Shown here one piece after another: positions 8,145 through 36,504 of a DNA stretch of 36,991 nucleotides (position 1 is the first letter of the stretch; each line of letters begins with the position of its first letter). The notes below the pieces were generated by a model. It was not told the origin of the DNA. It saw only the letters and a list, made by a program, of their open reading frames with translations, and made no database searches. Location of the stretch: positions 1-36,991 of the forward strand of contig JADZEM010000074.1 in assembly GCA_020850535.1 (NCBI GenBank). Direction: 5' to 3'. The translations under genes were made by a program, and so were the position numbers. The DNA is from Chloroflexota bacterium. GTDB taxonomy: Bacteria; Chloroflexota; UBA6077; JACCZL01.

Positions 8145-8178
8145 TCTAGACCAGCGCGTCCGTGGGACGTGGGGTGCG

Positions 8179-8343
8179 GGTTCTGGACCGTGGGCCGTGG
8201 ATCGTGGATCGTGGGTCGTGGGTTCTGGGCCGTGGGTCGTGGGTCGTGGATCGTGGGTTCTGGACCGTGGACCGTGGATCGTGGGTTCTGGACCGTGGGT
8301 CGTGGGTTCTGGGCCGTGGATCGTGGATCGTGGGTTCTGGGGG
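8179..8343. repeat. Degenerate heptamer tandem array, about 23 units
   Basis: A continuous in-register run of 7-base units of four main kinds (GTGGATC, GTGGGTC, GTGGGTT, CTGGACC/CTGGGCC), about 165 bases. Because 7 is not a multiple of 3 and no unit makes a stop, several frames are open through it and encode the same heptapeptide-periodic sequence (for example VDRGSWV). These ORFs are artefacts. It occupies much of the 447-base gap between the hydrolase start and the pseudokinase stop; the rest of the gap holds one GTCATCCTGAGCGCAGCGAA repeat at 8373-8392 and nothing else I recognise. Confidence 0.92.
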
Positions 8344-8591
8344 CAGGCCGGTGAAAGTGCGCGACCCCCCATTGTCATCCTGAGCGCAGCGAAGGATCTC
8401 ACCCGCTGACCGTCAGCCTTCGCGTCAGCAGGTGAGGCGATTCACTTCTCTCGCAAAACCTGCCCTGCGCTTGCCGAATCGGCCCGATCTGCTCAGGCTG
8501 GCATCCTCGTGGCTGAGGGTTCTTCGGCGGGAGCCCGATCCGCGGGCCCCCCGCGACGTAACATCCGCCTCGCCCGATCCAACATGCCGAA

Positions 8592-11075
8592 TCAGCGGCT
8601 GCCGTGCATGGTGGACATGGTCGGGTCCGGGCCGTCATCCTGCTCGCGGAGGGCGCGCGCCAGTTGGCCCTGATCCGCACTGAGGCGGGCCAGGGCCAGA
8701 TCGAGCGACGCGCTGCGGAGGGCCAGCAGCGCACCCAGCAAGTGCGCTTCCAGCACGACCGGCGAGCCGGCCGTCCTGGCACGCGAGCGCGCCACGTCCA
8801 GCACCTGCTGCCAGCCGGGACTGGCGGCCCCAGGCGGGCTGCCCGGGCCAGCCGCCGGCAGCGCCGCGATGACCGTCCGGGCCGCTGCGTCCGGCTCGCC
8901 GATGGCCTCCCGCACGACGCGCCGGGCCAGCCCGTCGCCAGCCGTGAGCAGGCCCGCCAGCAGCGCCGCCGTGCACACCTGGCCGCCGACCGCCTCGGCG
9001 TGCTGGCGCGCAGCCGCGATGGCCCGGCTGACGCCAGCGCTCCAGACCGGCTGCCCGGCGAACGGCAGCGGCATGATCTCCTCGGCGCGCGCGGCCGTCA
9101 CGTCCAGCGCGAACAGCAACGGCTGCGCCTCCAGCAGCCGCGCGGCCTCGTCGCGGGCCTCGCGGTACGGCTTGCGGATGTCGCGGTCGCGAGTGGCGCA
9201 GGTCGGATCGAGCCAGAGCGCACGGTCGAGCAGGGCCGGCCGGTCGAAGCGGATCGCCTCGACGCCCGGCTCGGGCGGATCCCAGCAGCCGACCAGCGCA
9301 TGCCACCACTCGCCCAGGTCGAGGACCGCCACCAGCGGCTGCAATCCGAGGTTCTCCAGGCAGGCCGCCGCCAGCAGCGCCAGATCGAGGCAGGTGCCCT
9401 CGCCCATCCGCGCGGCGTCGTCCAGCAGGACGCTGTGCGGCAGCCGGACCTTCTGGCTGTCGGTAGCCCAGTGGGGCGGCTCCAGCCGATAGCTCACCTG
9501 CCAGCGCTCGGACAGGATCTCGAAGAGGGCCGCGAGCAGACTGTCAGCCGGGCCATTCGGATCGGTCAGCGCCGACACCTCGGTGGCCAGAGCCGCCACC
9601 AGCGGATGATTCGGCAGGACGAACGTCGCCAGGGCCGATTGATGCTCCGGCAGCGTGGACCACTCGTTGTGGGGCAGCAGCCAACACTCGACCGGCTCGA
9701 CTGCCTGGTGGTCGCCGTCGACGGCGACGGTCAGCCGCCGCCGCGAGCGCTCGATCTGCCCTTCGAGCACGTCGTAGCGGAGCCCGATTGGTGGGAGCGA
9801 GAGGGGGAGGCTGGCCCCCGGTCGCAGGGCCGGCACGGCCAGCGTGATCGGCCCGAAGCACGGCTCGAGCGCAAGCTGCACGGTGCTGGCCGGCAGCGTC
9901 GTCTGGCCCTGGTTCCGCGCGATCATCCGCCCGACGACCGGCAGGCCAGCGTGCGCCAGCGCCAAGGAGATCGTCCCGGCCAGCTCGATGTCGAGGGTCA
10001 GGCCGTGGGCGCGCAGCCGTCGCCAGCCGGGCGGGGCCAGGAAGAGGGTGGTGTCGCCGCACTGGACTGTCGACCAGGGACGCAGGATGGCCGGCGTACC
10101 CGGCGCGAGCGGCTGACCGTCGACGAGCGTCCCGTACCGGCTGCCAGCGTCCTCGATCCACCAGCGATGGTCCTGGCGCCAGACGCGGGCGTGCTGCCGC
10201 GAGACACGCCGGTCCGCCCGCAGGTCGACGTCTGGCGGCTCGGCGGTGGTCCGCCCGATGGAGGCAGGCTGGGCTGGCGGGAGCGGCCAGCGATCGGCCA
10301 GATGGTCGCCGCGGGCGAGCGCGAGGTGGAAGCCGTCGCCCTGGCGCCGGCCAGCCGTCGGAGCGGCCCGTCGGATGCCGTCAACCATCAGCGAGGCTGA
10401 CGATATTGGCGGCGTGGCAGGTACGGGCGCAGGTGGGCCGGCGGGTACGGGTGCAGATGCGGCGATGGGTGCAGGTGCGGCGGCTGGCGCTGCCGGCCGC
10501 ACGATGGTCGGCGGCTCCAGCATCTCGCCCGTCGCCGGGGCGGCGTCCGGGCGCGCGCGAGCGTCCTGGCGTGCTGCCGCCTGTTGCCAGCCGCCGGTGC
10601 TTCGCAGGGCCGTCCGCATGGCCGCCGCCGACTGGAAACGGCGGGCGGGGTCCAGGTCGAGTGCGTGGTGAATCGCGCGGGCCAGGTCGGGCGGCGTCGG
10701 CGGGCTGAGCGCTGTCAGCGGACGCAGCGGATCACCACCCTCGTGGCGGCCCTGGCGACGACCCTGCTGGCGGCTGGCGGCTGGCGGCGGCGGCTCGCCT
10801 GCCAGCAACTGGTAGAGGGTCTCGCCGACGGCGTACACGTCGTCGAGGACGGACCGCTGCCCTGACGCCGCGCCGAGGTGGGCGAGCACCAGGCGGCCGT
10901 CGTCGCGGACGCGGAGCTGCTCGGGGACGATCTTGCCGTGGGTCAGGGGCGGGGTCTGGCTGTGGAGGTACACGAGCGCGTTGAGGAGGTCATCCGCCCA
11001 GGCCAGCACTTCAGTGGGGGTGGCGCGCCGACCGAGACGCTGCAGGTAGATGGGCAGAGCCTCGCCGGGGTTCAC
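8592..11075 (-). CDS. Multidomain pseudokinase-FHA-transglutaminase-like-ClpN protein
   Basis: 827 residues, GTG start with AGGAGG ten bases upstream. Residues 1-160 match only the C-lobe of a Ser/Thr kinase (AWADDLLNALVYLHS, VYAVGETLYQLLAGEPPPP, LDLDPARRFQSAAAMRTAL); the ATP-binding N-lobe is absent, HRD is HGK (46-48), DFG is replaced by AHLG (65-68) and the activation loop is missing, so it should be catalytically dead. A Pro/Ala linker (165-245) leads to an FHA domain (about 247-348: IGR, SRQHARV, SRYGTLVDG), which would bind phosphothreonine. Residues 355-600 resemble the N-terminal module of DUF4011-type helicases: a beta domain, LLPHNEW, FVLPNHP, then transglutaminase-like Cys562 (GTCLDLALL), His592 (WWHALVG) and DPT (623-625). 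Residues 677-815 look like two Clp-N repeats. Likely a cytosolic signalling scaffold; function unknown. Confidence 0.85.
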   Translation of the reverse strand: MNPGEALPIYLQRLGRRATPTEVLAWADDLLNALVYLHSQTPPLTHGKIVPEQLRVRDDGRLVLAHLGAASGQRSVLDDVYAVGETLYQLLAGEPPPPAASRQQGRRQGRHEGGDPLRPLTALSPPTPPDLARAIHHALDLDPARRFQSAAAMRTALRSTGGWQQAAARQDARARPDAAPATGEMLEPPTIVRPAAPAAAPAPIAASAPVPAGPPAPVPATPPISSASLMVDGIRRAAPTAGRRQGDGFHLALARGDHLADRWPLPPAQPASIGRTTAEPPDVDLRADRRVSRQHARVWRQDHRWWIEDAGSRYGTLVDGQPLAPGTPAILRPWSTVQCGDTTLFLAPPGWRRLRAHGLTLDIELAGTISLALAHAGLPVVGRMIARNQGQTTLPASTVQLALEPCFGPITLAVPALRPGASLPLSLPPIGLRYDVLEGQIERSRRRLTVAVDGDHQAVEPVECWLLPHNEWSTLPEHQSALATFVLPNHPLVAALATEVSALTDPNGPADSLLAALFEILSERWQVSYRLEPPHWATDSQKVRLPHSVLLDDAARMGEGTCLDLALLAAACLENLGLQPLVAVLDLGEWWHALVGCWDPPEPGVEAIRFDRPALLDRALWLDPTCATRDRDIRKPYREARDEAARLLEAQPLLFALDVTAARAEEIMPLPFAGQPVWSAGVSRAIAAARQHAEAVGGQVCTAALLAGLLTAGDGLARRVVREAIGEPDAAARTVIAALPAAGPGSPPGAASPGWQQVLDVARSRARTAGSPVVLEAHLLGALLALRSASLDLALARLSADQGQLARALREQDDGPDPTMSTMHGSR

Positions 11076-11174
11076 CTCGCGACCGCCTCCTGATCCTCAA
11101 CCTTGAGCGCCACGACCGCATGCGCGTCGAGTATAGCGATGGCAGCCCACCTGTCATGCCCTACGGCAGTCGTG

Positions 11175-11208: not shown

Positions 11209-12444
11209 CTACGGCAGCGGCACCGCGCCGACCCGGTAGTACGCCGACGCCCGCTCGCGGAAGTAGCCGCCGTCGTCGTCGGCGTTCAGCGACGGCCGCA
11301 CGTTCCCGTCGATCGGCGGCGGCTCGGTGATGCCGTCGCCGCTGGCATCCGAGGCGTCGGTCGCACCGTCGGCGCCGCGTCCGAACAGCAGCCCGATCAC
11401 CCCGGCCTCGGCGTACTGCCGCAGGTGGGCGCCGCCGGGATCGTCCAGCAGCCACTCGACGCGGTTATCCTGGTAGTGGTTCCAGGTGTTGTTGACGGCC
11501 CGCATCTTCGTGTTGCCGTAGGGGATCTGCCAGATCACCACCCGCAGCCTCGTCCGCTCCGCGAAGCCCGACAGGAACCGCGCATGCCGCGCGAAATCGG
11601 CGTCGTTCCACCAGGAGCGACCACGGTCGCGGTAGATCGCCTGCTTGAACGCCGCGTCGCGGTCGCTCGTCTCCGAGAACGCCAGGTCGAAACGGGCGCC
11701 CAGGCCAGCGTAGAACGTTGCCTCGCGCTGGGCCAGCCGGTCCACCGTCCGATCCCAACTGTTCTGGTAGAACGGGTCCGTCCCGCCGCCCCAGGCGCTG
11801 ACGTGGTACGCCAGCAGCACGTTCGGCGCGGCCTGGTCCCGCAGCCGCACGATCGCCTGGGCGAGGCCGCTGGCGTCGTCCGGCAGGTCCGAGATCAGCG
11901 ACAGCCCCGACGAGCCGACGATCACGCGCACGGTGTGGGGATCGTCGTTCTGGGCACGCTGGTGCAGGAATCCCCAAAGGTCCGGCTCGACGTGCAGCAC
12001 CACGGTCTGGTTCGGGAGCGAGCCGGCCCGCAGCAACACCAGCCGGAGATCGTCGAAGTAGGCGCGCATCGTCTCGGGCGTCGTCACGTTCTGGATCACG
12101 GCGTTCGGCTCGTTCGTGCCACTGCCGCGCCCGGGGGCAGACTGAGTGATCTGGTAGTAGGTGAAGACCGGCAGCATCCCCTGGGCCGCCGACTCGCGCA
12201 TGTACGCCGTCACGAACTCGCCGTTCGGCATCCAGTTCGTCCAGCCGGCCCCGGTGTTCACGCCGCCCGCGAGATACTGGTAGCGCAGGCCGAACGGGGC
12301 CGTTGCGCGCATGCTGGCGGCCGTGTTGGTCCCGCCAGACATCCCCAACTGCAAGGTCGAGGGCCAGCCACGCGGCAACGGCGGCATGCTGCCGACGCGG
12401 GCCGGCGTGGCCTGCCCCAGCACGGTGTACGCGCCGAGCGTCAC
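11209..12444 (-). CDS. Unrecognised probably membrane-anchored extracytoplasmic protein
   Basis: 411 residues from the GTG at 12444, but this start cuts a membrane segment in half. In the same frame upstream, after an in-frame TGA, the sequence reads LIARLRRLYRRIRPWLLDAT then LGLLALIVVTLGAYTVLG, a textbook positive-inside N-terminal anchor. The only start available ahead of it is a CTG at 12528 with GGAG seven bases before it; this would give 439 residues. The body is rich in Trp and Tyr with an alternating strand pattern (VVLHVEPDLWGFL, NVLLAYHVSAWGGG, FDLAFSETSD, LRVVIWQIPYGNTK) that suggests a TIM-barrel such as a glycoside hydrolase. I cannot assign a family. It stands alone between the pseudokinase gene and a MITE-like element. 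Confidence 0.7.
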   Translation of the reverse strand: MTLGAYTVLGQATPARVGSMPPLPRGWPSTLQLGMSGGTNTAASMRATAPFGLRYQYLAGGVNTGAGWTNWMPNGEFVTAYMRESAAQGMLPVFTYYQITQSAPGRGSGTNEPNAVIQNVTTPETMRAYFDDLRLVLLRAGSLPNQTVVLHVEPDLWGFLHQRAQNDDPHTVRVIVGSSGLSLISDLPDDASGLAQAIVRLRDQAAPNVLLAYHVSAWGGGTDPFYQNSWDRTVDRLAQREATFYAGLGARFDLAFSETSDRDAAFKQAIYRDRGRSWWNDADFARHARFLSGFAERTRLRVVIWQIPYGNTKMRAVNNTWNHYQDNRVEWLLDDPGGAHLRQYAEAGVIGLLFGRGADGATDASDASGDGITEPPPIDGNVRPSLNADDDGGYFRERASAYYRVGAVPLP

Positions 12445-12715: not shown

Positions 12716-12946
12716 GCCGGGGGGTGAGGTTGAGCTTCGGCGCCTGCGAGATTCCTCCCCGCATCCTGCACGGTCTGAGACGCCTCGCGTACTGCGGGGC
12801 GACCCTGTCAGGAGGTCTCCGTGTTCTCCTCGCGTGGCTCCTGCCCTCCGGTTGCTACACTCCGTCCGCTGGTCCATCATCCAGCAGCGGAGCAGCGTTG
12901 CGTGGCAAGCCCTGGCGGCTGGCCCGCTGGAGAGGAGCCGTGGCGC

Positions 12947-13921
12947 ATGGCGAGCGGACCTGAGAGCGGACCCGAGGACCGGCCGCGCGCAGACGCCCTG
13001 CACGACGACCCTGCCACTGTCGCCCAGGCGGTGGCCGGCGATCAACAGGCGTTCGCGCGGCTGCAGGCGGCCTGCGAGCACGTCGTGCGCTGCACGATCC
13101 GCCTCCAGGTCGGCCGGCGCACCGAAGATGGCCGCACGTTTGTGGACCGCGCCCTGGTGGACGATCTCGTTCAGGTGACCTGGGTGCAGGTCTGGCAGAA
13201 GCTGCCGACCTACAAGCCGGAGCTTGCGAGCTTCGCGACGTTTGCTCGGTACTGGGCCAGGATCATGGTCCGCCGCTACCGCGATACCCCCGTCGGCAAG
13301 GGTATCGAGACGCCGATCGGCAGCCTGCTCGACCGCGACGACGCCGACGACGGACCGAACGACGCCTTCGACCGCTTCGGCGCGTCGAGCGCCAGCCAGG
13401 CTCCGGACGACGCCATCGCGGCCGAGGTCTACGACGAACTGTTGCTGGTCACCTTCCAGACGGCCAGCCCGCCCCATCAGTTGATCGTCTTCGGCCTGAC
13501 CAAGGCGACGGACCTCAAGCCGCGCCAGATCGCCGCCGAGTTCTCGCATGAGCCGCTCACAGCCCTGGCCGACCGTCTCGAACGGGCGTACCTCGACCGG
13601 TCCGATCTGCCCGCCTCGCGCATCCGGCCGGCCTTCGAGCCGCTGCGGGATCGTCTGACGCGCCGCTTCGACGAGGTCGTTCGCGACCCGACGACGCTGG
13701 CGACCTACCCCCATGTGCACAGTCGCATCGTTGGCGAGACCACCCTGGCCGAGTACTACACGGCTGAGCCAACCGCGAACCTGACGCAGTGGTGGCACGC
13801 CGTCAAGCGGCGGGTCATCGCCGATCTTCAGCGCCGCGCCGATGGCCCCCTGGCCGAGTTGTTGCGGCAGTCTCAGCGGATGAACGCCAGGCGTGGCGTC
13901 GGCGAGCGCCCCAGCCGCTAG
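12947..13921 (+). CDS. ECF-like RNA polymerase sigma factor with long C-terminal extension
   Basis: 324 residues from the ATG at 12947, which follows AGAGGAG; the frame is open upstream to 12821 but without a better ribosome site. Residues 22-110 look like sigma region 2: VAQAVAGDQQAFARL, then LVDDLVQVTWVQVWQKLPTY and FATFARYWARIMVRRYRD, the -10 recognition helix pattern. Residues about 188-235 (HQLIVFGLTKATDLKPRQIA) could be a diverged region 4. The remaining 90 or so residues (LTRRFDEVV, TTLAEYYTAEP, WWHAVKRRVIADLQRR) are not part of a normal ECF sigma, which is about 180-200 residues. The next gene, 31 bases on, encodes a zinc-finger protein, which supports the sigma/anti-sigma reading. 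Target promoters are unknown. Confidence 0.72.
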   Translation: MASGPESGPEDRPRADALHDDPATVAQAVAGDQQAFARLQAACEHVVRCTIRLQVGRRTEDGRTFVDRALVDDLVQVTWVQVWQKLPTYKPELASFATFARYWARIMVRRYRDTPVGKGIETPIGSLLDRDDADDGPNDAFDRFGASSASQAPDDAIAAEVYDELLLVTFQTASPPHQLIVFGLTKATDLKPRQIAAEFSHEPLTALADRLERAYLDRSDLPASRIRPAFEPLRDRLTRRFDEVVRDPTTLATYPHVHSRIVGETTLAEYYTAEPTANLTQWWHAVKRRVIADLQRRADGPLAELLRQSQRMNARRGVGERPSR

Positions 13922-13952
13922 CCGCCCGACCTGCCGCAACGGAAGGATCACG

Positions 13953-14720
13953 GTGCCGATCATGAACGCCCCCACCGAGCATCTGAGCCCGAGTCCCCAT
14001 CTCAGCCCGCAGACCATCGCCGCCTACGTTGCAGACACCCTGGCGGACGATGCGCTCTCGGATGTGGAGCGGCATGTCGCTCGTTGCGACGACTGTGCGC
14101 TGGCCTCGCAGGAGGCACTCGCGGTGGGCGACATGGTGGACCGGTGGAATGCCCAGACGCACGGCGTGGCGGTGCGCGGCAGCATCATCCTGCAGGCGCT
14201 CTCACTGGCGCGGGTCCGCTCGACGGTCGCGGCCCTCCAGGAGCGCGTGGCCGCCTGGGAGCGTCGCTGGAACGGGCAGGTCGAGGCGGCGCTCCAGGTG
14301 GTCGTGGACGCGCCCGGGCAGGCCGCCCGCGTCCTGACCGAGGGCGTCGAGGGTCTGGCCCGCCCGAGCGCCGCCTGGCGGTTCGCGCCGGCCCCGGCTG
14401 CCATCCCGACGCGTGGCGCGGCCCGGCGAGGCGCGGCCCAGCCGATTGTGGTGACGGCCAGCGGCACAGCCGGCGGACCATCCGCCCGCGTGGCCGTCAG
14501 CGGCGAGCGCGGCGAGGTCGCCGTCCGCATCGACGGCGTGCCGGCCGGGCAGCAGCCGCCGCTGGTGCTGCTCGTGCCCATCGACCGCGGCCCCGCGCCC
14601 GTGAGCGCCGAGCCGCGCCTGGCCCTCCCCGAGCCGGGCGCCGGCAGCGACGCCTGGATCACCCGCTTCGAGGGGCTGGCCGCCGGCGAGTACCTGCTGG
14701 CCTTCGAGCCGCTCGGCTGA
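13953..14720 (+). CDS. Zinc-finger (zf-HC2-like) anti-sigma-type protein, soluble
   Basis: 255 residues. The start chosen is GTG 13953, five bases after GGAAGGA; ATG 13962 is the alternative. Near the N-terminus SPQTIAAYVADTLADDALSD is followed by VERHVARCDDC, the H-x3-C-x2-C core of ZAS-type anti-sigma factors. A coiled-coil-like helix (about 75-125: STVAALQERVAAWERRWNGQ) and an Ala/Pro/Gly-rich beta-type C-terminus (VAVSGERGEVAVRIDG, YLLAFEPLG) complete it. There is no transmembrane segment, unlike most membrane anti-sigma factors, so it would sense something in the cytoplasm or act as a scaffold. It is cotranscribed with the preceding sigma-like gene. Confidence 0.7.
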   Translation: MPIMNAPTEHLSPSPHLSPQTIAAYVADTLADDALSDVERHVARCDDCALASQEALAVGDMVDRWNAQTHGVAVRGSIILQALSLARVRSTVAALQERVAAWERRWNGQVEAALQVVVDAPGQAARVLTEGVEGLARPSAAWRFAPAPAAIPTRGAARRGAAQPIVVTASGTAGGPSARVAVSGERGEVAVRIDGVPAGQQPPLVLLVPIDRGPAPVSAEPRLALPEPGAGSDAWITRFEGLAAGEYLLAFEPLG

Positions 14721-35178: not shown

Positions 35179-35646
35179 TTGAGGGTGCGCCAAGGGAAGC
35201 CTCATTTATCCAGGAGGTGTGATTCCTTCCCCGCCAAGGCCCAGCCAGCCAGCGGGAATCGAGTCTTGCGCCGCGCGAGGTATCGACCGCGGCGAAGCGT
35301 AGACAGAGCGACCGACAGGCCACAACGCAAGTGAAGCGGATCAGCCCCGTGACCGATGTAGAGCAGATGCCGACCGTGTCCTCAAACGGGAAGGCTCCAG
35401 TGGGCGTGGGCTATGGCGACTGCGCCGGAGAATCTACCGGGGTCGAAGCGCGTGGCACGCCGGGCAACGGATAGGTGGAGGAACTTGGGAAGCCCACGGT
35501 GGTCTCACCCGGTGAGTAGCGCGAGCGAAGGCGTCAGCGACCGCGATGCTGCCGAGGGTGGCAGAGCGGCCCGTAGTACCGAGGAAGCGGGGCAACGCCC
35601 GTGGAGGAAAGGGGCGGCGCAGGACAGCTTGCCCGACGAGAGACAC

Positions 35647-36504
35647 ATGGCGGCACCCGAGGCCGAATCAACCGTGTCCACGAAACTCGCCGGGCTCGTC
35701 GCACGGGCGAAGAAAGAAGACCGACTCACCAACGTCGTCCAGTACGTGGACGAGGAGCTGCTGCGCCTCCTGAACAACTGGCTGAAAGCCGGCGTGGTGG
35801 AGCGTGGGGTGGTCACGCAGGCGAGCGAGGGAGTCCCACAGGGCGGCCCCGTCAGCCCCGTGTTGGCGAACGTCTACCTCCACTACGTGCTTGATCTGCG
35901 GTTCGAGCGGCGCTTCAAGAAGAACTGCCGGAGCGTCGCGGAGCTGACCCGGCGCTTCGCGGACGACTTCATGGCGGTGTTTCGGGACCAGCAAGATGCC
36001 GAGCGCTTTCAGCAGGAGTTGGAGGGGCGGCTGGCGGCTTTCGGGCTGCGGGTCGCGCCGGAAAAGACGGCGAAGCTGCGCTTCGACGGCAGCCTGTTAC
36101 GGGGGCCGGGGCGCCCGGTCGAACGGCCGGCGACCTTCACCTTCCTGGGCTTCACCCACTATCTGACGAAGGCGCGGAGCGGCTGTATCCACCTGGGACG
36201 GAAGCCGAGCGCCAAGGCGCGTGAGCGCTTCTTGTGCACAGCCGCCACGTGGCTGACGGCGAACCAGCACGTTCGGGTCCGGGCCCAGCAAGCCAATGTG
36301 ACACGGATGCTCTGAGGCTACTACCAGTACTTCGGACTGCGCCTCTGTGGACCGGCACTCGACGGTGTACGGTGGCGAGTCCGCAAGCTCTGGTGGGCGA
36401 CACTGCGGCGGCGCAGCCAGAAGGCGGCACGTCACGGTGATTGGGCAAGCTTGAACGCCAAGCCCTGGTTCCACCTCCCGTCACCCCGGATGACGCAGGC
36501 CTGA
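35647..36504 (+). pseudogene. Group II intron reverse transcriptase/maturase, broken
   Basis: From the ATG at 35647: STKLAGLVARAKKEDRLTNV is the typical IEP N-terminus, but after VQYVDEE it jumps to LLRLLNNWLKAGVVERGVVT, skipping about 150 residues with RT blocks 0-3 and the first catalytic Asp. What follows is normal: VPQGGPVSPVLANVYLHYVL (block 4 region), RRFADDFMAVF with FADD in place of YADD, and TFLGFTHY. At 36313 a TGA interrupts the maturase part; reading on in frame gives GYYQYFGLRLCGPALDGVRW then KLWWATLRRRSQKAA, the normal domain X end, up to TGA 36502-36504. A single C-to-T change from CGA would explain the stop. Inactive as RT. Confidence 0.85.

What the first reader, a model, noticed from the sequence alone, without database searches (positions are those of the whole stretch)
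8592..11075. Pseudokinase C-lobe + FHA + helicase-type transglutaminase module + Clp-N repeats in one protein
Seen: no kinase N-lobe, HGK for HRD, no DFG, an FHA domain, a Cys562/His592 transglutaminase-like module whose flanking motifs (LLPHNEW, FVLPNHP, GTCLDLALL) resemble the N-terminal part of DUF4011-type helicases, and two C-terminal Clp-N-like segments. Known: FHA domains read phosphothreonine, DUF4011-type helicases occur in defence contexts, and Clp-N domains bind substrates or adaptors. Inference: a phospho-responsive scaffold, perhaps pairing with a separate active kinase, a Clp ATPase or a defence helicase. I know of no described protein with this order.
Basis: partly seen in the sequence, partly recalled or inferred. 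Interest (0 to 1): 0.65.

Follow-up and report, generated by a model that had tools for sequence, protein, structure and literature searches.

The report
FHA–transglutaminase-like–Clp-N protein with dead kinase
A rare soil-bacterial protein joins a broken protein-kinase fragment, a phosphate-reading FHA domain, a probably active transglutaminase-like enzyme otherwise found on anti-phage helicases, and the substrate-binding domain of a Clp unfoldase, which suggests a phosphorylation-guided protein-modifying enzyme that nobody has described.

Summary
The 827-aa ORF (8592-11075, -) is a real gene: AGGAGG ribosome site, a stop 8 codons upstream, even GC3, and a 45%-identical homologue in another MAG of its class. 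The parts are:
- A kinase C-lobe of the Chloroflexota 'YLHSQ-PPVIHRDIKP' type (hhalign 1.5e-25). It lacks the N-lobe, HRD Asp, DFG and the activation segment, so it is dead.
- An FHA domain (7.6e-13).
- A beta-sandwich plus transglutaminase-like module with its Cys562/His592/Asp623 triad. It matches the N-terminus of the 'anti-phage ProA' DUF4011 helicase family (2e-37) and weakly resembles eukaryotic transglutaminases by fold.
- One complete ClpC-type N domain (not two separate repeats) that has lost its phosphoarginine glutamates.

The FHA–TGase–Clp-N core occurs in 2 of about 400 Chloroflexota genomes searched, both in one class. In the homologue the kinase is apparently absent from the chain; a complete Ser/Thr kinase lies two genes downstream instead. 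Kinase–linker–FHA proteins occur elsewhere in the phylum, so the front half is probably an eroded one.

Best reading: a phospho-guided thiol enzyme (peptidase, deamidase or transglutaminase) that uses Clp-N to bind its client. No helicase or defence genes lie nearby, and function is inferred.

The parts
8592..11075 (-). whole gene, 827 aa (GTG start)
   Evidence: homologue L033 45% over residues 251-815
11086..11091 (-). AGGAGG ribosome-binding site, 10 nt before GTG
   Evidence: sequence
11097..11099 (-). in-frame TGA 8 codons upstream, which excludes an upstream N-lobe
   Evidence: sequence
10596..11075 (-). residues 1-160: pseudokinase C-lobe remnant (HRD to HGK, DFG to HLG, activation segment deleted)
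   Evidence: hhalign 99.7%, 1.5e-25 to Chloroflexota kinases; alignment; PknB 2.4e-4; AF2 pLDDT about 67-88 over residues 1-90
10338..10595 (-). residues 161-246: Ala/Pro-rich, disordered linker
   Evidence: AF2 pLDDT mostly below 50
10032..10337 (-). residues 247-348: FHA domain; R275, S292, H295 kept; usual Asn of NGT is Tyr314
   Evidence: Pfam 7.6e-13; Foldseek 1.8e-7 to CT664 and GarA/OdhI; alignments
9651..10022 (-). residues 352-475: beta-sandwich (Ig-like) part of the ProA-N module
   Evidence: NF058533 match 371-685; AF2 strands
9051..9650 (-). residues 476-675: transglutaminase-like core
   Evidence: Foldseek to transglutaminase 1g0d and protein 4.2
9390..9392 (-). Cys562, predicted nucleophile (GTCLDLALL)
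   Evidence: invariant; N-terminus of core helix in AF2
9300..9302 (-). His592, predicted catalytic (WHALVGCW)
   Evidence: invariant; in a strand in AF2
9207..9209 (-). Asp623, predicted third member of triad (LWLDPT; Glu in helicases)
8631..9047 (-). residues 677-815: one ClpC-type N domain (two four-helix halves), no AAA+ domain

Best explanation
A cytosolic, phosphorylation-guided thiol enzyme. The FHA domain docks on a phosphothreonine made by a Ser/Thr kinase. The transglutaminase-like core (Cys562-His592-Asp623) then cleaves, deamidates or cross-links a bound protein. The C-terminal Clp-N domain supplies client binding, as it does in ClpC. The N-terminal kinase remnant is catalytically dead. 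It is either a docking surface or the decaying front of an ancestral kinase-linker-FHA protein whose catalytic role is now filled by a kinase encoded elsewhere. Shown: domain identities, dead kinase, intact triad, absence of AAA+. Inferred: enzyme activity, phosphothreonine binding, client capture, kinase partner.
For: Triad residues are conserved between two 45%-identical homologues, and Cys and His also in the ProA-type helicases. AF2 places Cys at the start of the core helix and His in a strand, with Asp immediately after the last strand of that group, which is the transglutaminase order. Foldseek aligns sandwich plus core to transglutaminase 1g0d. FHA keeps its Arg and Ser. In the homologue the gene starts at an ATGA overlap with an upstream TPR-like frame, has no kinase lobe, and is followed on the same strand by a 267-aa gene and a complete kinase. 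Intact kinase-Pro-rich linker-FHA proteins exist in the phylum, and the window lobe is 38-40% identical to its closest kinases of that phylum.
Against: There are only two sequences, and no activity or partner is known. The FHA Asn that usually contacts the phosphopeptide is Tyr/His. The homologue's contig starts about 125 nt before the inferred ATG, so the missing kinase lobe rests on frame evidence. The window gene has no kinase neighbour. The transglutaminase fold match is modest (Foldseek E 4-6e-3), and some standalone relatives have lost the Cys.
Confidence: 0.4

Rival explanations
1. Non-catalytic adaptor or scaffold: FHA picks up phosphorylated proteins and the Clp-N domain feeds them to, or regulates, the ClpC/ClpP machine. 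The transglutaminase-like fold only binds.
For: The own genome encodes ClpC and other Clp-N proteins; FHA and Clp-N are binding domains; the kinase is dead.
Against: A pure binding module would not need to keep Cys/His/Asp. In ClpC the N domain binds adaptors and clients, so a free Clp-N would compete with ClpC rather than deliver to it. Both phosphoarginine-site glutamates (E32, E106 of ClpC, PMC12583610) are Ala703 and Ala777 here.
Confidence: 0.2
2. Split ProA: the protein supplies in trans, under phospho-control, the transglutaminase module that the genome's own ProA-like DUF4011 helicase lacks, as part of an anti-phage response.
For: The own helicase scores 1221 bits to ProA but starts just before the DUF4011 motif, without the module. 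Both carriers have a DUF4011 helicase against 5 of 27 other class genomes. No class helicase carries the module.
Against: The genes lie on different contigs, no defence genes are near the window gene, co-occurrence is p about 0.05, and other genomes have module-less helicases without this protein. The FHA-type modules form their own clade.
Confidence: 0.12
3. Decoy or sequestering protein like mycobacterial ClpC2, whose free Clp-N binds peptides or ligands and so shields ClpC.
For: Foldseek also lists the ClpC2 C-terminal domain and plant ClpT2; the own genome has a further Clp-N protein without ATPase. The ClpC2 role is from my own knowledge.
Against: It does not explain the conserved triad or the FHA domain.
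Confidence: 0.08
4. The kinase lobe is a meaningless leftover, or an assembly join, in front of an otherwise functional FHA-TGase-Clp-N gene.
For: The homologue appears to lack it; it is below the Pfam cut-off.
Against: Clean ribosome site, single open frame, even GC3, and the same kinase-linker-FHA order in other Chloroflexota.
Confidence: 0.2

Closest known systems
Anti-phage ProA (NCBIfam NF058533), DUF4011/DUF3320 helicases, related to Hhe
   Same: Residues 371-685 match ProA positions 2-327 (2e-37); same beta-sandwich plus GTC/HALVG module
   Different: No helicase, no DUF4011; 128 bits against a cut-off of 1500; Asp instead of Glu as third triad residue; fused to FHA and Clp-N
Chloroflexota kinase-linker-FHA proteins (e.g. 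L099, L100, L014)
   Same: Same order kinase, Pro/Ala-rich linker, FHA
   Different: Those have a complete kinase; here N-lobe, HRD/DFG and activation segment are gone, and TGase plus Clp-N are added
ClpC/ClpB N domain, and ATPase-less Clp-N proteins (mycobacterial ClpC2, plant ClpT2)
   Same: Complete eight-helix Clp-N fold, TM (by target length) about 0.6-0.83
   Different: No AAA+ rings; phosphoarginine glutamates replaced
Mycobacterial FhaA - MviN (Rv3910) pseudokinase pair
   Same: FHA plus pseudokinase signalling; Foldseek lists 3oun, FhaA FHA with the intracellular domain of Rv3910
   Different: There on two proteins; here on one chain, and the lobe is far more reduced
FtsH/vWA ternary conflict systems with ClpN repeats and transglutaminase-like peptidase effectors (PMC7159879, PMC8195603)
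   Same: Draw on the same domain pool (FHA, kinases, TGL peptidases, ClpN)
   Different: No vWA, MoxR, STAND or EAD component detected among the window genes scanned

Membership tests
Hanks-type Ser/Thr kinase (active) | N-lobe with Gly loop and Lys, HRD Asp, DFG Asp, activation segment | tested here: not met
   All absent or changed
Hanks-type kinase fold (homology only) | C-lobe homology | tested here: met
   hhalign 99.7%, 1.5e-25; AF2 helices E and F
FHA domain | Profile match above cut-off, conserved Gly-Arg and Ser..His | tested here: met
   Pfam 49.1 bits against 20.7; residues
FHA domain | Phosphothreonine binding | not testable with these tools
   Asn of NGT is Tyr314; needs a binding assay
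Transglutaminase-like superfamily | Cys-His-Asp/Glu in order on helix and strands | tested here: met
Transglutaminase-like superfamily | Fold similarity to a solved transglutaminase | tested here: inconclusive
   1g0d E 5.6e-3, prob 0.92; 7tvz protein 4.2 E 3.7e-3, prob 0.89
Transglutaminase-like superfamily | Enzymatic activity | not testable with these tools
   needs purified protein
Anti-phage ProA helicase | Full-length score above cut-off, DUF4011 and helicase | tested here: not met
   128 against 1500 bits; only positions 2-327
Hsp100/ClpC unfoldase | Clp-N domain | tested here: met
   Window alone is below Pfam cut-off; homologue above it (2.3e-8); Foldseek; 1e-8 to ClpC
Hsp100/ClpC unfoldase | AAA+ ATPase rings | tested here: not met
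   No such match; the protein ends after Clp-N
ClpC phosphoarginine reader | Glu32 and Glu106 equivalents | tested here: not met
   Ala703 and Ala777 (alignment; roles from PMC12583610)
Known defence system (PADLOC) | Model match outside the generic kinase region | tested here: not met
   Listed best stretches lie in the kinase region and linker (residues 1-203; one weak match reaches 271)

The most novel reading that the evidence does not exclude
A phosphorylation-programmed protein-modifying enzyme: an FHA-directed transglutaminase or peptidase that borrows the Clp client-recognition domain to choose substrates, working either beside or in place of ClpCP, or as the trans-acting effector half of a ProA-type anti-phage helicase.
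Probability: 0.25. Interest if true: 0.72.

Novelty: new variant of a known kind. Interest (0 to 1): 0.5.

Why it matters
It frees the unexplained N-terminal module of DUF4011/ProA anti-phage helicases from the helicase. A short soluble protein with the same triad could be purified and assayed, so the activity of that module, about which the paper library held nothing, becomes directly testable. It also shows Clp-N used as a client-binding part outside AAA+ machines together with an enzyme, and a bacterial FHA coupled to a dead kinase on one chain.

Tried and rejected
Upstream N-lobe or frameshift: rejected (in-frame TGA, 133-bp gap). Defence island around the gene: rejected; neighbours are a luciferase-like oxidoreductase, a RidA-type protein, an alpha/beta hydrolase, and an ECF sigma factor with zinc-finger protein. 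PADLOC kinase matches (PD-T4-6, mad6): generic kinase similarity. Phosphoarginine reading: rejected by loss of both glutamates. Recent copy of a helicase N-terminus: not supported; the FHA-type modules form a separate clade (unrooted, few rows). More homologues: the single genome-contig scan gave only L033, with restrictive patterns; plasmids gave only helicases where annotated; two further Chloroflexota classes gave none with this order. Literature searches for ProA/DUF4011 or for this architecture found no functional paper. The first AF2 alignments placed fragments badly and were trimmed before use.

Full report
The gene. The ORF 8592-11075 (-) encodes 827 aa. An AGGAGG lies 10 nt before the GTG, and an in-frame TGA lies 8 codons upstream. 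The preceding gene ends at 11209, so a kinase N-lobe cannot be encoded upstream. GC by codon position is coding-like across the whole ORF. It lies in a 7.65-Mb genome assembly, contig C74.

Kinase part (1-160). Pfam is weak (0.22). A profile comparison with four kinase regions from three Chloroflexota genomes gives 99.7% and 1.5e-25 over 148 columns, and the closest are 38-40% identical. The chain starts at the hinge/alpha-D region. HRD is HGK, DFG is HLG, and about 30 residues of activation segment are deleted. AF2 models residues 1-92 with the helices E and F and the beta strands of a C-lobe (pLDDT about 67-88 by block), and the rest poorly. Catalysis is excluded. Complete kinase-Pro-rich linker-FHA proteins are found in other Chloroflexota, and similarity to the query runs through kinase, linker and FHA in single ORFs. 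The front half is therefore best read as an eroded member of that type.

FHA (247-348). Pfam 7.6e-13. Foldseek hits CT664, GarA, OdhI and FhaA bound to the Rv3910 intracellular (pseudokinase) domain. Arg275, Ser292 and His295 are kept; the usual Asn is Tyr314.

Transglutaminase-like module (352-675). NCBIfam NF058533 'anti-phage ProA' matches residues 371-685 at 2e-37, its positions 2-327 of 1903; the homologue gives 3.9e-39. N-termini of DUF4011 helicases from three Chloroflexota genomes and one viral contig align through EW, F(V/I)xPN, Q(K/R)(V/I/L)R, GTC.D, LL.AACLE, the catalytic His (HALVG in most rows) and D/E.T. Two of them were scored against ProA and gave 1e-95 and 1e-107. Annotated plasmid relatives are also DUF4011/DUF3320 helicases. 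A profile of the module further finds shorter proteins in 38 other Chloroflexota genomes; those read are mostly about 360-440 aa with an N-terminal membrane segment, and a few have lost the Cys. In a small unrooted tree the FHA-linked modules, the helicase modules and the membrane-type modules separate, the helicase group only weakly. AF2 of residues 345-827 (mean pLDDT 73) gives a beta-sandwich followed by a core with Cys562 at a helix start, His592 in a strand and Asp623 just after the next strand. Foldseek aligns 338-356 columns to protein 4.2 and to red sea bream transglutaminase (E 4-6e-3), so the fold call is likely but not overwhelming.

Clp-N (677-815). The 'two segments' are the two four-helix halves of one N domain. 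Evidence: matches to Chloroflexota ClpC down to 1e-8, Pfam 34.5 bits against a 20.7 cut-off in the homologue, BLAST 1e-4 to the genome's own ClpC, Foldseek ClpC NTD with TM 0.81-0.83. A thin profile comparison was inconclusive (54%). The glutamates of the two phosphoarginine pockets (E32, E106; PMC12583610) are Ala703 and Ala777 (Val and Glu in the homologue).

Distribution and neighbours. All 29 held genomes of the class and about 400 of the phylum were searched. FHA-TGase-Clp-N was found only in the window genome and in Centralia_MAG_593 (L033/L048). There the gene most likely starts at an ATG that overlaps the stop of an upstream TPR-like frame (ATGA), which gives about 592 aa without a kinase lobe. 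It is followed on the same strand by a 267-aa gene of no known family and a 651-aa complete Ser/Thr kinase (Pfam 4.7e-47). That contig ends about 125 nt upstream of the ATG, so the absence of the lobe is inferred from frames. In the window the scanned neighbours are ordinary metabolic and regulatory genes.

Link to ProA-type helicases. The window genome has one DUF4011 helicase (C97, 1885 aa, 1221 bits to ProA). It starts just before the DUF4011 motif, without the transglutaminase module, and follows a complete kinase-WD40-like gene. Both carriers have DUF4011 helicases, against 5 of 27 other class genomes; by my calculation p is about 0.05. This is a lead, not a finding.

Interpretation. Shown: the anatomy, the dead kinase, the intact and conserved triad, the lack of AAA+. 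Inferred: the protein is a phospho-guided thiol enzyme whose FHA targets it and whose Clp-N captures the client. Known building blocks are in an order I found nowhere in the paper library. It is therefore a new variant of known kinds rather than a new class. Its main value is that it isolates the ProA-N module in an assayable protein.

Noticed in passing
L043 2029-4368 and 4573-10230 (G000:C97): The genome's ProA-like DUF4011 helicase lacks the N-terminal transglutaminase module and lies 205 bp downstream of a complete Ser/Thr kinase with a WD40-like C-terminal part.
   Followed up: partly
L044 2250-2975 (-) (G000:C116): Another ATPase-less Clp-N protein: a double Clp_N domain followed by a double zinc ribbon, 241 aa, next to a CinA-like gene.
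   Followed up: no
L053-L077: Membrane-anchored standalone relatives of the ProA-N transglutaminase module in Chloroflexota; L065 and L066 have lost the catalytic Cys and His.
   Followed up: partly
L048 4266-5069 (-): 267-aa protein without any Pfam or NCBIfam match, between the FHA-TGase-Clp-N homologue and the kinase.
   Followed up: no
window 12821-14720 (+): Sigma-70 region 2 protein followed by an overlapping zinc-finger (zf-HC2) anti-sigma-like protein.
   Followed up: no
window 11209-12444 (-): 411-aa protein upstream of the gene with no Pfam match at 0.01.
   Followed up: no
window 35413-36315 (+): Group II intron-like reverse transcriptase fragment (GVPQGGPVSPVLANVYLHYVLD) near the contig end.
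   Followed up: no
window 5581, 8402 and 23049: ORF starts reading 'MR(S/P)FAALR(M/V)T' recur, probably translated copies of an intergenic repeat; the stretch near 8150-8354 is also internally repetitive.
   Followed up: no
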